NCBI GenBank assembly: GCA_022573225.1
Contig: JACZUI010000028.1
Location: 1 to 35,996 of the forward strand
Source of the DNA: Acidobacteriota bacterium
GTDB lineage: Bacteria > Actinomycetota > Acidimicrobiia > Spongiisociales > ZC4RG35
Direction of reading: 5' to 3'
Length of the DNA: 35,996 bases
Position numbers and translations under genes: made by a program
Part shown: positions 1 to 4,790 of the stretch, one piece after another
How positions within the stretch are numbered: position 1 is the stretch's first letter
Layout: every line of letters starts with the position of its first letter
Notes under the pieces: generated by a model
What the model saw: only the letters and a program-made list of their open reading frames with translations
What the model was told of the DNA's origin: nothing
The model's database searches: none

Positions 1-456
1 ATGGAGCCGGCATGCCGCCTGGGTTCTCAGAGCGGTGAGTTCGAGGTGGCGTTTCGCCAACATCCGCAACACCCGGGTGTGGTCCTCACCACGTACCACT
101 GCCAGACCGGGTTGACGGAGAGCGGCGATCGCCACCGAACGGGCATCATTGGGGTCGTTCTTATCCGAACGGCCCGATCCCAACAGCCTCACCCGGGAAG
201 CCAACACCGCAGGGACGTCCACCACCTGTTCGCCGCCAGCGATGAGCTGTTGGGAGAGTAGATAACCGAGCCCGCCGGCAGCCTCCACCGCCCAGAGGCG
301 GCCATCACCATTCAGTTCTGAAGCCCAGCCGATCAGCTGCTCCGTCTGGTGTTGGTCGGCCGGAACTGTTATCTCGCCCAACACCATTTCGGATCCGTCA
401 ATCGCAACCGCGGTATGGGTTGCCTTATGCGGATCGATTCCAATCGTCGTGACCAT
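1..456 (-). CDS. IS110-family transposase, N-terminal part (cut by window edge)
   Basis: The frame runs from an ATG at 456 without a stop to base 1, giving 152 residues of a protein normally about 350-400 long; the C-terminal part is outside the window. It has the RuvC-like DEDD domain of IS110 transposases: D8 in IGIDPHK, E58 in WAVEAAGG, and D101/D104 in SDKNDPNDAR. The serine-bearing C-terminal domain would follow. A strong ribosome binding site (AAGGAGG) sits 6 nt before the ATG, so the start is well supported. IS110 enzymes act as RNA-guided recombinases that use a bridge RNA encoded in the element's non-coding end; here the 5' non-coding stretch 457-710 is long and structured. The copy shows no internal stop in the visible part, so it may be intact. 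The 86-residue plus-strand frame over the same bases is only its antisense. Confidence 0.9.
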   Translation of the reverse strand, partial: MVTTIGIDPHKATHTAVAIDGSEMVLGEITVPADQHQTEQLIGWASELNGDGRLWAVEAAGGLGYLLSQQLIAGGEQVVDVPAVLASRVRLLGSGRSDKNDPNDARSVAIAALRQPGLAVVRGEDHTRVLRMLAKRHLELTALRTQAACRLH

Positions 457-650
457 GTCAACCTCCTTGTTTGAAGATCACTTGGGTGGCCAAGGTGGGC
501 ACTCCTGATCACAACAACTGGTTGCCTCCGGCGTTCGCCTCTTACGAGCCACACCACGACCGAGGGGTTCGACGGGCTAGCAGATCGTCACAAAGACCAC
601 CCCACAGGGTGGACCAGGCACATTGAGAGCCAAACCCGTCGAACCCTCAA
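457..650 (-). ncRNA. Candidate bridge RNA / structured left end of the IS110 element
   Basis: This is non-coding sequence directly 5' of the IS110 transposase. A long stem pairs 562-576 (GAGGGGTTCGACGGG) with 635-648 (CCCGTCGAACCCTC), 14 pairs with one bulged G. It encloses a second perfect stem, 597-602 with 607-612 (CCACCC/GGGTGG, 4-nt loop). A third small stem, 481-485 with 490-494 (CTTGG/CCAAG), lies nearer the gene. Known IS110-group bridge RNAs (IS621 type) come from this position and fold as a 5' stem-loop followed by target- and donor-binding loops. The structure is seen; the bridge-RNA identity is inference. The ends are approximate. Confidence 0.5.
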
Positions 651-675
651 AGCTACGGAACCCGACGTCCCGCAA

Positions 676-708
676 CACCCACAAGTATCAATCAGGCACT
701 TATGGGTG
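676..708. repeat. Imperfect inverted repeat CACCCACAAGT / ACTTATGGGTG
   Basis: The arms 676-686 and 698-708 match at 10 of 11 positions with an 11-nt spacer. The repeat lies about 220-250 nt 5' of the IS110 transposase start, where the left end of the element could be. The right arm shares the word TTATGGGYGG with sites near 2311 and 4782. It could be an element terminus, a target-site remnant or an operator. Confidence 0.45.
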
Positions 709-745
709 GCTGCTGGATTCGCCGGGATCGTGGAGGTCTTGACGT

Positions 746-1084
746 CTAGAGGGTGAGGTTGCGACCCCAGAGGATGACTGTGATACCTACTAGGACGATG
801 CCCCCGCCGACGAGGTCGGCAGTGTCTGGCCGCGCTCCATCGATAATCCAACCCCACGTCATGGCTCCAAGGAGGAAAACCCCGGCATAGGCCGCGTAGA
901 GGCGACTGAACGACGTTGCTGGCTGGAAGGTCTGAACGAGCGCGTACAGGAAAAGGGCGCCGATCCCGGCTCCGATCAGCCACGCAGATCCGGCGTCGCG
1001 CCGCCAGCGCCAGATTGCATATGCGCCACCGAGTTCGGCGATCACCGCGACAAGAAATATCGCGAAGGTCTTAGCGATGACCAT
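746..1084 (-). CDS. ynfA: YnfA/UPF0060 family small membrane protein
   Basis: This is a 112-residue, very hydrophobic protein with about four transmembrane helices. It carries the family hallmarks: AELGGAYAIWRWRRD near the N-terminus, SRLYAAYAGVFL in the middle and WGWIIDGARPDTADLVGG in helix 3-4. The length fits the YnfA/UPF0060 family (about 108-110 residues). YnfA is related to small multidrug resistance transporters and acts in the inner membrane; the substrate in this organism is unknown. The ATG at 1084 puts the first helix where the family has it, though no strong ribosome binding site is visible. The gene stands alone between an IS110 left end and a divergent DUF971 gene. Confidence 0.88.
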   Translation of the reverse strand: MVIAKTFAIFLVAVIAELGGAYAIWRWRRDAGSAWLIGAGIGALFLYALVQTFQPATSFSRLYAAYAGVFLLGAMTWGWIIDGARPDTADLVGGGIVLVGITVILWGRNLTL

Positions 1085-1198
1085 TACTGCGCGTCCGGGG
1101 GCTCACAGGCTCAAGTGCTCTTTCGCAGGCACCACGTGATGTTGGCATGTCAGATGCAATCCCACCACCCTCTTCAGAGGAGTCCTGCCGTCAACGCC

Positions 1199-1226
1199 CC
1201 GCACATAACGGGCGACTTATGTGCGG
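1199..1226. promoter_or_regulatory. Perfect 10-bp inverted repeat, likely operator
   Basis: CCGCACATAA (1199-1208) and TTATGTGCGG (1217-1226) are perfect reverse complements separated by 8 nt. A CATAAT hexamer at 1241-1246 matches the -10 consensus at 5 of 6 positions, so the palindrome would cover the -35 region of a promoter for the DUF971 gene, the position of a repressor site. Related half-sites occur at 676-708 and 4769-4788. Confidence 0.5.
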
Positions 1227-1307
1227 CTGATCTGACCGTACATAATGCGGGTTGTTGGACCTGTCCCCCTGGTTTCCGTTCTCGCTGAGCGGTTACTCTC
1301 CGGCACC

Positions 1308-1607
1308 GTGGACCCGCCGACGCGCATCGAGATAGAGGGCGGGACTCAGATGCTTCTTGTGTGGCACAACGGTACTGAGCAACGATTCAGCGCCCGAGAA
1401 CTGCGAGCAGCGTGCCCCTGCGCCGCGTGTGGTGAACCGGACGGTGCGCGGCGCCTTGCAGTCCTTCTCAGGGGACCGATCGAAGTGGAGATTGGCGACG
1501 CAGAGTTGGTCGGTTATGGGATCAACTTGACGTTCCGGCCCGACGGACACCGAACAGGGATCTTCTCATACGACTACCTGCGGAGTCTCAAGGACGGAGA
1601 CGTCTAA
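1308..1607 (+). CDS. DUF971 domain protein (GBBH-like N-terminal domain)
   Basis: This is a 99-residue protein covering one DUF971/GBBH-like N-terminal domain: strand IEIEGGTQMLLVWHNG, the motif LRAACPCAACGEPDG, and the conserved ending HRTGIFSYDYLRSL. The domain occurs alone in many bacteria, often near iron-sulfur assembly genes, and as the N-terminal part of gamma-butyrobetaine hydroxylase; the function of the stand-alone form is not established. I chose the GTG at 1308 because family members begin a few residues before the first strand and a -10-like CATAAT lies at 1241-1246. The in-frame ATG at 1245 would overlap that hexamer and is the alternative start. The stop lies about 10 bases from the broken end of a truncated IS110 gene on the other strand. 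Confidence 0.78.
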   Translation: MDPPTRIEIEGGTQMLLVWHNGTEQRFSARELRAACPCAACGEPDGARRLAVLLRGPIEVEIGDAELVGYGINLTFRPDGHRTGIFSYDYLRSLKDGDV

Positions 1608-2163
1608 CGGAACCCATGCGGGGCCGCATGTTTGCCGCCTCGGTGACCAGCCCGGTCTGATACCGGTTCTTGTACCGGATCCGGATCTCCTCGGGGGCGG
1701 TGAACACCAGATGACGTAACTGGTTCAACGTTTGGATACGTTGTTGACGTGCCGAACGGCGGGCCACCATCAGAACCCGGATCTGTTCCATCGGACCGTT
1801 CCTGGTTTTCGGGGTCACTGAAGCCTCACCGGAAAGAGCGGCTCGAGCCGCAGCCACCGCATCAGTGGGATCCGACTTTCCCTGTTTGCGTCGTTTCTGA
1901 CGGTTGGGACGATCCACTTCGACCACCACGATCTCTTGATCTGCGAGGAATCTGGTTAGTCCGACTCCCCAAGATCCGGTGCCCTCAACACCAACCTGGA
2001 TGATTGGGCCGAACCCGACCAACCAGGCCAACAGCTCCTCGTAGCCGGTCTCATCGGCAGGAAACGATTCGATACCTAACAATCCGCCGTTGTGATCGAT
2101 AGCTGCTGCCACATGAGTATCAGCGTGAGTGTCGACACCACCGGTGACTTCTACGATTCTCAT
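1588..2163 (-). pseudogene. IS110-family transposase, truncated after the DEDD domain
   Basis: The start is an ATG at 2163 with AAAGGGG just upstream. The protein opens with the RuvC-like domain: D11 in GGVDTHADTH, E60 in GVEGTGSWG, and D98/D101 in KSDPTDAVAAARA. The coiled region ARRSARQQRIQTLNQLRHLV and the TGLVTEAANMRP segment follow. After about residue 181 similarity stops, and the frame reads ten more residues antisense to the end of the DUF971 gene before a stop. IS110 proteins need a C-terminal serine domain of about 150-200 residues, so this copy should be inactive. It is a different subfamily from the copy at 1-456 (DTHAD instead of DPHK), so the two are not duplicates. Confidence 0.85.
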
Positions 2164-2322
2164 TGCCGCCCCTTTCTTTCGTAAATGGCGAAGGGGTGGT
2201 CGCACCACCGGAACGGCGGACCGGACCCGACCGAACTGGGCTAACAGTTCAACCGGTGATCCACCGCCCGACCGGTGGGCGCCACACAGCAATCATTCTC
2301 CCCCAGCCGGTTATGGGCGGCC
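2164..2322 (-). ncRNA. Structured left end of the truncated IS110 copy, candidate bridge-RNA region
   Basis: Three compact stem-loops lie in a row before the transposase start: GGTGGT/ACCACC (2195-2200 with 2204-2209, 3-nt loop), GAACTG/CAGTTC (2233-2238 with 2245-2250, 6-nt loop) and CCACCG/CGGTGG (2261-2266 with 2273-2278, 6-nt loop). All three are perfect 6-bp stems. This matches the position and general layout of IS110 bridge RNAs. The sulfatase stop codon begins at 2330, so the element end must lie between about 2279 and 2329. The structure is visible; the RNA itself is inferred. Confidence 0.45.
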
Positions 2323-2329
2323 TGTTTGT

Positions 2330-4690
2330 CTATTGCTGAGTCATGAGACGTTGCAGTTCGGCTTCGTTGTCGATGATGACATCCCCGCTCACGTCGATTG
2401 TCACCTGCGATAGTTCTCCGCTGAATTCGAAGGGTGAGGCGTAGTCGGTTGGGCTTACCGAGTCGATCCCGTCTCGTCCGCAGCTCACCCCGATGATTCC
2501 AAACAGGTTGGGAACGGTGAATTCGAACTCGTTACTCGCGACCAGTTCGCTATTCACATATAACTGTCCTCGCCCTGCGGCCCCTTTCCCGACGGTGAAG
2601 TCGGGGGGAGCTGTGGGCTCGAACTCGTAACGCACGACCAGATCCCCTGTCGGCAATGGATCTGGCGAGCTAACTCGGAAGAAGTCTCTCCCGAGGTAGT
2701 TGTGCACGTAGTGAAGGCGCCCGTCCTGGATGAAGAGCGTGTAGCCACCATGTCGATTCCCGTGAGCTATGAGCACACCTTCCGCTTCTCCGGAGTAGTT
2801 CAACTCGGCCGTGATGCTGTGGGCTCGGTTATAAACCCGCGGAGAGGCGGCAAACGGCACGGCTGCTCCACCGGGCTGGTATACGTATTTGGTGCGTGGA
2901 CGAGCGATCGACGGACGCTCCACATTCATACGGGCCATGTCCGCGGTCGCCAGGGGAAGTACGCCGTACCGATCAGCTTCCCCGTACCAAAGTTCTATGA
3001 GTTCGGTGAGCTTCTGCGGATGGTCCTCGGCAACGTTTGTTGTCTCGGTTGGGTCAGTATTCAAGTCGTAGAGCTCCCAGGCGTTCTCGTCGAGGTCGGC
3101 TAGTACGTCGGCCGTTAGTGGTCCTCCGAAGTAGCGCCCCTTTTCCGCAGCCTCGGCGAAGCTGGGCCCTGGGAACGGGCAGACCGCCCGCCAGTTCTTG
3201 TGGTAGATGGACCGGTGTCCAAACATCTCGAAGTACTGGGTCGTGTGCAGGCTCTCAGCGTCGGCGTCGTCGAACGACGAGGCGAAACTGACACCATGGA
3301 AGGATGACTGAGCTACGCCTCCGATTTCAGACGGCGGTTCAACATCCAGAGCTTCGAGAAGGGTTGGCACGATGTCGATCGCGTGGGCGTACTGAGAGCG
3401 AACGCTACCCCGATCGGAGATACCTGCCGGCCATGACAGGATGAACGGATCGGAGATTCCGCCTCGGTACGTTTCGCGTTTCCAACGGCGGAACGGTGTC
3501 GCTCCAGCCCAGGTCCATCCCCACGAGTAGTGCGGAAAGGTATCAACGCCACCCCAGTCATCGAAGTGAGCCATGTTGTCCTCGAGGGTCTCAGGCGTTC
3601 CGTTGAAGAACAACATCTCGTTGAATGTTCCGTGGACTCCACCCTCGGCGCTTGGTCCGTTGTCCGAGATGACAACAACAATGGTGTTGTCCGACTCACC
3701 GATCTCGTCTAGGTAGGTGATGATCCGTCCGAAGTGGTGGTCGGTTTGCGTTAAGAACCCCGCGTAGGTTTCCATCTGACGTGCATACATCCGCTGTTCA
3801 TCCTCAGACAACGAATCCCATGCGGGCACATCTGGATCACGCTCCGCAAGAACGGTCCCCGGGGCAACAATCCCCATTTCGACCTGACGCTGCAAAACCG
3901 TCTCGCGGTAGGCATCCCACCCACTATCGAACTGGCCCCGGTAAGGCTCAACCCACTCTTTTTCGACTTGGTGAGGAGCATGACCCGCGCCCGTGGCGTA
4001 GTACAAGAAGAACGGCTTCTCAGGTGCGTTGTTGTTGGCGTCCTTGATGAACTCGATCGCCTTGTCGGCAAGATCGATATTCAGGTGGTAACCATCTTCG
4101 GGCGTCCTCGGCTGCTCGACAGGATGATTGTCATATGTCAGATCCGGATGCCACTGATCGGTGTCACCACCCAAGAATCCGTAGTAACGCTCGAAGCCAC
4201 GCCCTAGCGGCCAACGATTGAACGGACCAGCGAGCGTCCCTTCCTCCGGTGGAGTCAAATGCCATTTGCCAATCGCGAACGTGTTGTAACCCTTCTCGAG
4301 CAGAATCTCCGAAAGGAATCCGTGCTCCGCACCCATGATCCCGTTATGAGCGGGGAAGCCCAGCGACAACTCCGTAATGGCCGACAAGCCCAAGGCGTGG
4401 TGGTTCCGGCCGGTAAGAACCGAACCTCGAGAGGGCGAACACAAAGCGGTGGTCTGCATATTCGAATACCGAAGCCCACTCTGGGAGAGACGATCCAGTG
4501 TCGGTGTCTCGACCAAGCCGCCAAACGGGCCGAGTTGACCAAACCCGACGTCGTCGAGGACGAACACGATCACATTCGGCGCACCCTCCACGGCTCGGTT
4601 CGGAGCCGGCCAAGCAGGCGAAGACTCATCGAGGGTCTTCCCAACCACCCCTGGAAATGGTGAGCCCGGTTCGTATTCATGCAGCGACAT
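2330..4690 (-). CDS. Type I arylsulfatase (formylglycine-dependent)
   Basis: This 786-residue protein hydrolyses sulfate esters. The metal-binding aspartates lie in VFVLDDVGFG (D46, D47). The sulfatase signature CSPSR is at 84-88, where C84 is converted to formylglycine, followed by GSVLTGRNHHALGL. FAIGKWHL and later VVVISDNGPSAEGG and TYRGGISDPFILSWPAG are the further active-site segments. The extra C-terminal beta domain and the length match the large arylsulfatases such as mycobacterial AtsA/AtsD. No signal peptide is seen, so it probably acts in the cytoplasm. The start is the ATG at 4690 behind GGGAGG; the frame extends to a GTG at 4771, but that extension has no ribosome site and covers the promoter. 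A formylglycine-generating enzyme is needed and is not in the window. The substrate cannot be told. Confidence 0.92.
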   Translation of the reverse strand: MSLHEYEPGSPFPGVVGKTLDESSPAWPAPNRAVEGAPNVIVFVLDDVGFGQLGPFGGLVETPTLDRLSQSGLRYSNMQTTALCSPSRGSVLTGRNHHALGLSAITELSLGFPAHNGIMGAEHGFLSEILLEKGYNTFAIGKWHLTPPEEGTLAGPFNRWPLGRGFERYYGFLGGDTDQWHPDLTYDNHPVEQPRTPEDGYHLNIDLADKAIEFIKDANNNAPEKPFFLYYATGAGHAPHQVEKEWVEPYRGQFDSGWDAYRETVLQRQVEMGIVAPGTVLAERDPDVPAWDSLSEDEQRMYARQMETYAGFLTQTDHHFGRIITYLDEIGESDNTIVVVISDNGPSAEGGVHGTFNEMLFFNGTPETLEDNMAHFDDWGGVDTFPHYSWGWTWAGATPFRRWKRETYRGGISDPFILSWPAGISDRGSVRSQYAHAIDIVPTLLEALDVEPPSEIGGVAQSSFHGVSFASSFDDADAESLHTTQYFEMFGHRSIYHKNWRAVCPFPGPSFAEAAEKGRYFGGPLTADVLADLDENAWELYDLNTDPTETTNVAEDHPQKLTELIELWYGEADRYGVLPLATADMARMNVERPSIARPRTKYVYQPGGAAVPFAASPRVYNRAHSITAELNYSGEAEGVLIAHGNRHGGYTLFIQDGRLHYVHNYLGRDFFRVSSPDPLPTGDLVVRYEFEPTAPPDFTVGKGAAGRGQLYVNSELVASNEFEFTVPNLFGIIGVSCGRDGIDSVSPTDYASPFEFSGELSQVTIDVSGDVIIDNEAELQRLMTQQ

Positions 4691-4732
4691 CGCGCCTCCC
4701 GTTGGTCTTTTCTGCTCAGAATGCTGACGGGC

Positions 4733-4760
4733 AAGATAGTGAAGAGTCTCTACCGACCAA
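4733..4760 (-). promoter_or_regulatory. Putative sulfatase promoter
   Basis: On the minus strand TTGGTC (4760-4755) and TATCTT (4738-4733) are separated by 16 nt, and the sulfatase ATG lies about 43 nt downstream of the -10. The match to consensus is partial. The palindromic motif at 4769-4788 lies immediately upstream of the -35, a usual place for an activator. Confidence 0.4.
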
Positions 4761-4768
4761 AAAGGGAG

Positions 4769-4788
4769 CACATAAAGGCACTTATGGG
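4769..4788. promoter_or_regulatory. CACATAA / TTATGGG inverted repeat upstream of the sulfatase gene
   Basis: The arms 4769-4775 and 4782-4788 match at 6 of 7 positions around a 6-nt spacer. The core CATAA/TTATG is shared with the perfect repeat at 1199-1226. This suggests a regulator or mobile-element site used more than once in the region. Confidence 0.4.
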
Positions 4789-4790
4789 CG

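What the first reader, a model, noticed from the sequence alone, without database searches (positions are those of the whole stretch)
457..711. Structured leader of the IS110 element: candidate bridge RNA of an uncharacterised recombinase
The 5' non-coding end of the transposase at 1-456 has a 14-bp stem (562-576 with 635-648) enclosing a perfect 6-bp hairpin (597-612), plus a third stem at 481-494. IS110-group elements are known to encode a bridge RNA in this place that pairs with target and donor DNA. The visible transposase has its DEDD residues and a strong ribosome site, so the element may be active. If so, this is a programmable recombinase of a new subfamily.
Basis: partly seen in the sequence, partly recalled or inferred. 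Interest (0 to 1): 0.8.

Follow-up and report, generated by a model that had tools for sequence, protein, structure and literature searches.

The report
IS110 bridge RNA targeting attC-like sites
The folded leader next to a cut-off IS110 jumping-gene enzyme is the element's "bridge RNA", a guide RNA that pairs with both the element's own ends and its insertion site, and here the insertion site is a repeated recombination site resembling those of integron gene cassettes; the principle is known, but the target and a second conserved RNA at the other end of the element are unusual.

Summary
On the minus strand, window 495-695 folds as described (12-bp perfect core of the long stem, 6-bp hairpin), and the structure is conserved. 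In 31 homologous leaders, 94% of cells pair, with 79 double-sided changes against 32.5±4.7 shuffled.

It is the bridge RNA of an IS110-group element. The target loop's two guides covary with the insertion flanks (LTG p=5e-5, RTG p=2.5e-4; relatedness not fully removed). The donor-loop guides match the element's ends, with matched changes in three clades. Joined right and left ends form a -35/-10 promoter.

The target is CATAAGTGCC|GTTATG. A pattern covering it occurs 22 times in this genome and never in the control. These sites sit in cassette-like arrays, and several fold as attC hairpins with an extrahelical base; no IntI was found. Known attC-hunting relatives belong to IS1111, not IS110.

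"New subfamily" is too strong: the element is a new member of a known kind. The window holds only the recombinase's N-terminal 152 residues, because base 1 is a contig end.

An unexpected extra: relatives carry a second conserved pseudoknotted RNA (about 97 nt) directly after the recombinase gene. It matches no Rfam family above threshold.

The parts
1..456 (-). IS110 recombinase (transposase), N-terminal 152 aa with the DEDD RuvC-like domain; cut by the contig end at base 1
   Evidence: PF01548 E=4.2e-22; window is G000:C18 from base 1; 83% identical to full-length relative L115
462..468 (-). Shine-Dalgarno AAGGAGG of the recombinase gene
   Evidence: sequence
495..677 (-). bridge RNA (RNA start inferred about 7 nt after the -10 box; end from the covariance model)
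   Evidence: model match 495-695 (this sequence is one of 31 in the model); covariation
652..676 (-). 5' stem-loop of the bridge RNA
   Evidence: fold; conserved pairs 28-29/42-43 of alignment A1
635..648 (-). target-binding-loop stem, 5' arm (pairs with 563-576)
   Evidence: helices 2 and 3 of A1, many double-sided changes
563..576 (-). target-binding-loop stem, 3' arm
   Evidence: helices 2 and 3 of A1
616..625 (-). left target guide LTG (CAAUGUGCCU)
   Evidence: covaries with left flank, p=5e-5, n=32
597..612 (-). apical hairpin of the target-binding loop
   Evidence: helix 4 of A1, 100% of cells paired
585..591 (-). right target guide RTG (GUGACGA)
   Evidence: covaries with right flank in relatives, p=2.5e-4, n=22
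537..545 (-). left donor guide LDG (GUAAGAGGC; most relatives AAAGAGGC)
   Evidence: equals the right end of the element in three clades
502..511 (-). right donor guide RDG (UGAUCAGGAG)
   Evidence: complementary to the element start CTGATT; TATCAG/CTGATA in the variant clade
684..689 (-). -10-like GATACT in the left end, half of the circle-junction promoter
   Evidence: TTGACG-N17-GATACT in abutted junction L117/L131; RE of relatives carries TTGACA
694..695 (-). core dinucleotide CT, left boundary of the element
   Evidence: homology of 38 leaders starts here
696..706 (-). left half of the target site, CCCATAAGTGC (attC-like L' half)
   Evidence: a pattern covering the unoccupied site occurs 22 times in the genome
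1204..1260 (-). neighbouring attC-like double palindrome
   Evidence: pattern expected 0.04 times per window, 2 found; sequence
4771..4786 (-). unoccupied target-like site CATAAGTGCCTTTATG

Best explanation
The leader is the bridge RNA of an IS110-group insertion sequence. In the excised circle the right end (TTGACA) abuts the left end (GATACT) and forms a promoter with 17-bp spacing that transcribes the leader, then the recombinase. The roughly 180-nt RNA binds the DEDD recombinase. Its first loop pairs with the target (LTG with the bottom strand of ...CATAAGTGCC, RTG with the top strand of CGTTATG...). Its second loop pairs with the element's own joined ends (LDG AAAGAGGC, RDG AATCAGGAG). 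The recombinase then inserts the circle at a short core inside a repeated attC-like palindrome of cassette arrays. Shown here: structure conservation, guide/flank and guide/end agreement, promoter geometry, and target repeats. Inferred from IS621 (PMC11208160): transcription, RNA-protein binding and catalysis. Whether this copy is active is unknown.
For: Covariation of the stems: 79 double-change cells against 32.5 +/- 4.7, 0/500 shuffles; slid controls at most 22. LTG/left flank p=5e-5, still p=7e-4 with leaders clustered at 90% identity. RTG/right flank p=2.5e-4. Donor guides change with the ends in three clades. The model finds the RNA 15-80 nt upstream of the gene in nearly all loci searched (80 matches in all), including recombinases only 34-46% identical and six annotated plasmid IS110s that were not in the model. 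The target pattern occurs 22 times in the genome and 0 times in the reversed control. Right-end flanks of sibling copies in the genome complete the same site. An abutted right-end/left-end junction occurs in G003. The C-terminal Ser domain PF02371 is present in the full-length relative.
Against: No RNA data. The recombinase is truncated by the contig end, so this copy's right end and right flank are unknown. The window's own LTG has one mismatch to its left flank within the seven bases next to the core, and its LDG one mismatch to the family's right end. With leaders clustered at 80% identity only 9 remain and the LTG test weakens (p=0.04; 0.31 on the variable positions).
Confidence: 0.92

Rival explanations
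1. A plain 5' untranslated regulatory structure of the transposase mRNA (attenuator or translation control) with no guide function.
For: It lies directly upstream of a strong ribosome site and folds stably.
Against: Loop letters covary with insertion flanks and with the element's own ends; the conserved unit ends about 40 nt before the start codon, and the ribosome site is not sequestered by it.
Confidence: 0.04
2. A decayed, immobile copy: the leader is a relic of a bridge RNA and no longer works.
For: LDG and LTG each carry a mismatch in the window; many siblings are fragments; the gene is visible only to residue 152.
Against: The visible reading frame is intact with all DEDD residues; the stem is perfect; contig C31 starts with an open C-terminal piece and right end of the same type.
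Confidence: 0.3
3. The target palindromes are dif/REP-like repeats, not attC sites; the cassette-like spacing is incidental.
For: Arms and spacing (11-6-11) resemble Xer dif; only about 7-8 of some 24 scored sites have a clear R''-L'' partner; no IntI over cut-off in this genome or 11 relatives.
Against: Complete sites fold as attC hairpins with an extrahelical base; site spacing is often 400-750 bp with single genes between; a 395-bp segment bounded by such sites is repeated at 98% identity in another contig.
Confidence: 0.35

Closest known systems
IS621 and the IS110 group with left-end bridge RNA (PMC11208160)
   Same: DEDD recombinase; RNA of about 180 nt in the left end; 5' stem-loop then two loops; LTG then RTG, LDG then RDG; junction promoter; repeated palindromic target
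   Different: Weak sequence similarity (phmmer E=2.5e-12 to IS621, mainly the C-terminal domain); target is attC-like rather than REP; target core CG where the donor has CT; right end about 170-200 nt long with its own conserved RNA
IS1111-attC elements ISKpn4, ISPst6, ISPa25 (PMC11187229; Tetu and Holmes 2008; Post and Hall 2009)
   Same: Insert at one specific place in attC sites of integron cassettes, guided by an RNA from the non-coding region
   Different: Those are IS1111: RNA downstream of the gene, guide order reversed, long subterminal inverted repeats; here the RNA is upstream and in IS110 order
ISEc21, IS110-type seekRNA (PMC11187229)
   Same: Upstream non-coding region makes an RNA carrying target matches
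   Different: Different target; no comparison of sequence made here
Integron attC sites / CALIN (PMC9024848)
   Same: Double palindromes with extrahelical base in gene arrays
   Different: Complete integrons were not found in Actinobacteria by that survey; no IntI found here

Membership tests
[quoted passage not shown]
   E=4.2e-22, D8/E58/D101/D104
IS110 group (bridge-RNA insertion sequences) | C-terminal domain with conserved Ser (PF02371) | tested here: inconclusive
   Beyond the contig end in the window; met in the 83%-identical relative L115, E=1.7e-21
IS110 group (bridge-RNA insertion sequences) | Structured RNA in the left end, upstream of the gene | tested here: met
   Covariation and model hits
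IS110 group (bridge-RNA insertion sequences) | Target loop guides match both flanks, bottom-strand guide 5' of top-strand guide | tested here: met
   LTG p=5e-5, RTG p=2.5e-4 across relatives
IS110 group (bridge-RNA insertion sequences) | Donor loop guides match the element's own ends | tested here: met
   Three clades with matching changes
IS110 group (bridge-RNA insertion sequences) | Promoter formed at the circle junction | tested here: met
   TTGACG-N17-GATACT in an abutted junction; sequence only, transcription untested
IS110 group (bridge-RNA insertion sequences) | RNA is transcribed, binds the recombinase and directs recombination | not testable with these tools
   Needs experiments
IS1111 group | Guide RNA downstream of the gene, reversed guide order, 7-17-bp subterminal inverted repeats | tested here: not met
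   Guide RNA is upstream in IS110 order; no inverted repeat of 7 bp or more seen between the ends by eye; the downstream RNA is nearly invariant and so does not act as a target guide
Classical integron (target arrays) | IntI integrase | tested here: not met
   No TIGR02249 match over cut-off in G000 (89% complete) or 11 relatives
Classical integron (target arrays) | attC: R''-L''...L'-R' hairpin with extrahelical base | tested here: inconclusive
   Clear in about 7-8 sites, absent or unrecognised in the rest

The most novel reading that the evidence does not exclude
An actinobacterial lineage of IS110 elements carries two conserved structured RNAs: the left-end bridge RNA and a nearly invariant pseudoknotted RNA of about 97 nt directly after the recombinase gene. 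The second RNA also occurs on its own elsewhere in the phylum and has a role in recombination or its control that IS621 lacks. Members of the lineage parasitise integron-like cassette arrays whose own integrase is not a recognisable IntI.
Probability: 0.25. Interest if true: 0.7.

Novelty: new member of a known kind. Interest (0 to 1): 0.45.

Why it matters
It adds a well-supported, far-diverged bridge-RNA family from uncultured Actinobacteria, with natural guide/target pairs that show how targets are re-coded. It also suggests that homing on attC-like sites arose in the IS110 group as well as in IS1111. The second conserved RNA is a testable candidate for an unrecognised component of some bridge recombinases.

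Tried and rejected
Solo bridge RNAs: leader hits without a gene (L116, L117, L118, L121, L039:4699) proved to be contig ends or copies cut by deletions or other IS elements, not stand-alone RNAs. Rfam: no family matches the leader; for the right-end RNA only weak opposite-strand matches to RF02341 below gathering. Classical integron: IntI search negative. The right-end RNA as a second target guide was rejected because its loops do not vary with the target. A hairpin at window 481-494 as part of the RNA was rejected because it lies outside the conserved unit. Right-end RNA in plasmids and phages by blastn: no match.

Full report
Observation. The long stem has 12 perfect pairs, a length not reached in 60 random windows of the contig. 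The transposase strand folds 2.5 standard deviations better than dinucleotide shuffles, the opposite strand only 1.3.

Context. The window is G000:C18 from base 1, so the recombinase is cut by the contig end. The N-terminal 152 residues match PF01548. Four right ends of the same family lie elsewhere in the genome. One of them, contig C31, begins with a C-terminal piece of an IS110 recombinase, 74% identical to the relative L115. It could be the missing half, but this cannot be shown.

Homologues. Recombinases 54-83% identical occur in Acidimicrobiia and some other MAGs. Homology of the leaders starts sharply at window ~704-699 and is strongest to ~535. The left boundary reads ...GTGC-CT-GATTGAT. 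The right ends read TTGACACAAAGAGGCTTCG followed by the target. One locus shows right and left ends abutted, CTTGACGCAAAGAGGCTTCTGATTGATACT, which gives a -35/-10 pair spaced 17 bp.

Structure. In 31 leaders the consensus structure pairs in 94.2% of cells. Fifteen pairs change on both sides, with 79 double-change cells against 32.5±4.7 shuffled; structures slid by 1-3 columns reach at most 22. A covariance model built from them finds the RNA upstream of the recombinase in nearly all loci. These include Nocardioides and relatives at 34-49% protein identity (mostly 23-49 bits) and six annotated plasmid IS110s not used in the model (27-59 bits). The window itself was in the model, so its score is not independent.

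Guides. The 8 nt of LTG match the left flank in 178 of 256 positions against 161.5 expected (p=5e-5, n=32). Clustering leaders at 90% identity gives p=7e-4; at 80% only nine remain and p=0.04. RTG pairs with the right flank (46 of 66 against 35.0, p=2.5e-4, n=22). LDG equals the right end in three clades: AAAGAGGC, AAACAGGC and AGAGAGG. RDG follows the left end: AATCAG with CTGATT, TATCAG with CTGATA. The permutation tests do not fully remove shared ancestry.

Target. The left flank of the window (CATAAGTGCC) and the right flanks of siblings (CGTTATG) join to CATAAGTGCCGTTATG. The pattern CATANGTGCCNNTATG occurs 22 times in G000 and in 28 of 138 genomes of the order, with control counts of zero except one genome. 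Two palindromes of this type lie in the window, against 0.04 expected. The sites have a dif-like 11-6-11 form. About 7-8 have a complementary partner 34-50 nt away, and those tested fold as attC hairpins with an extrahelical base. Genes between sites look like single cassettes: UPF0060, a GBBH-like/DUF971 protein, nitroreductase, alpha/beta hydrolase. A 395-bp cassette in the window (about 1215-1609) is repeated at 98% in contig C60, bounded by the sites. No IntI was found. I therefore call the arrays integron-like and leave membership open. In the library read, attC-targeting relatives are IS1111 (ISKpn4, ISPst6; PMC11187229), and an IntegronFinder survey found no complete integrons in Actinobacteria (PMC9024848).

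Second RNA. Directly after the recombinase stop codon relatives carry a 97-nt RNA with an outer stem, an inner hairpin and a pseudoknot CAGGA/UCCUG. It shows 39 double-change cells against 13.0±2.3 shuffled. A model finds it behind the gene in some 65 loci, including Nocardioides (48-70 bits, not in the model), and in three of six annotated plasmid elements. In 296 genomes of the phylum it occurs in 9. Four of those copies (L234, L235, L236, L240) have no recombinase nearby. Its loops are nearly invariant while targets differ, so it is not a target guide. Its function is unknown; a recombinase-mRNA 3' element or a recombination cofactor are the two readings I consider likely. It is absent from the window because of the truncation. 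Elements with long non-coding regions on both sides of the gene have been mentioned before as exceptions (ISHvo10, ISAcp5; PMC11187229), but I found no description of this RNA in the papers read.

Verdict. The leader is a bridge RNA. Transcription, binding, activity and programmability remain untested.

Noticed in passing
L139:175-271, L141:1326-1422, L034:2812-2908 and about 65 loci: A second conserved pseudoknotted RNA of about 97 nt immediately after the IS110 recombinase gene, strong covariation, no Rfam family above gathering threshold.
   Followed up: partly
L234, L235, L236, L240 (position 1501 on): Copies of that RNA with no IS110 gene nearby in other Actinobacteria; could be IS relics or an independent RNA.
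   Followed up: partly
window 700-4790; G000 contigs C2, C6, C11, C44, C56, C60: Integron-like cassette arrays with attC-like sites in an Acidimicrobiia-like genome, no IntI found.
   Followed up: partly
window about 1215-1609 and L208:4837-5231: The same 395-bp cassette (GBBH-like/DUF971 gene) at 98% identity in two contigs, bounded by attC-like sites: evidence of cassette mobility.
   Followed up: yes
window 1588-2163 (-), 2306-2322: A second, unrelated IS110 remnant (34% identity) whose upstream flank is the half-site GCCGCCCATAACCGGC, so it too seems to have inserted in an attC-like palindrome.
   Followed up: partly
L117/L131 (G003:C69): Abutted right-end/left-end junction of a related element kept in a chromosome, followed by unrelated sequence.
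   Followed up: no
L245, L247 (annotated CDS): In some elements the annotated recombinase frame runs through the downstream RNA hairpin instead of stopping before it.
   Followed up: no
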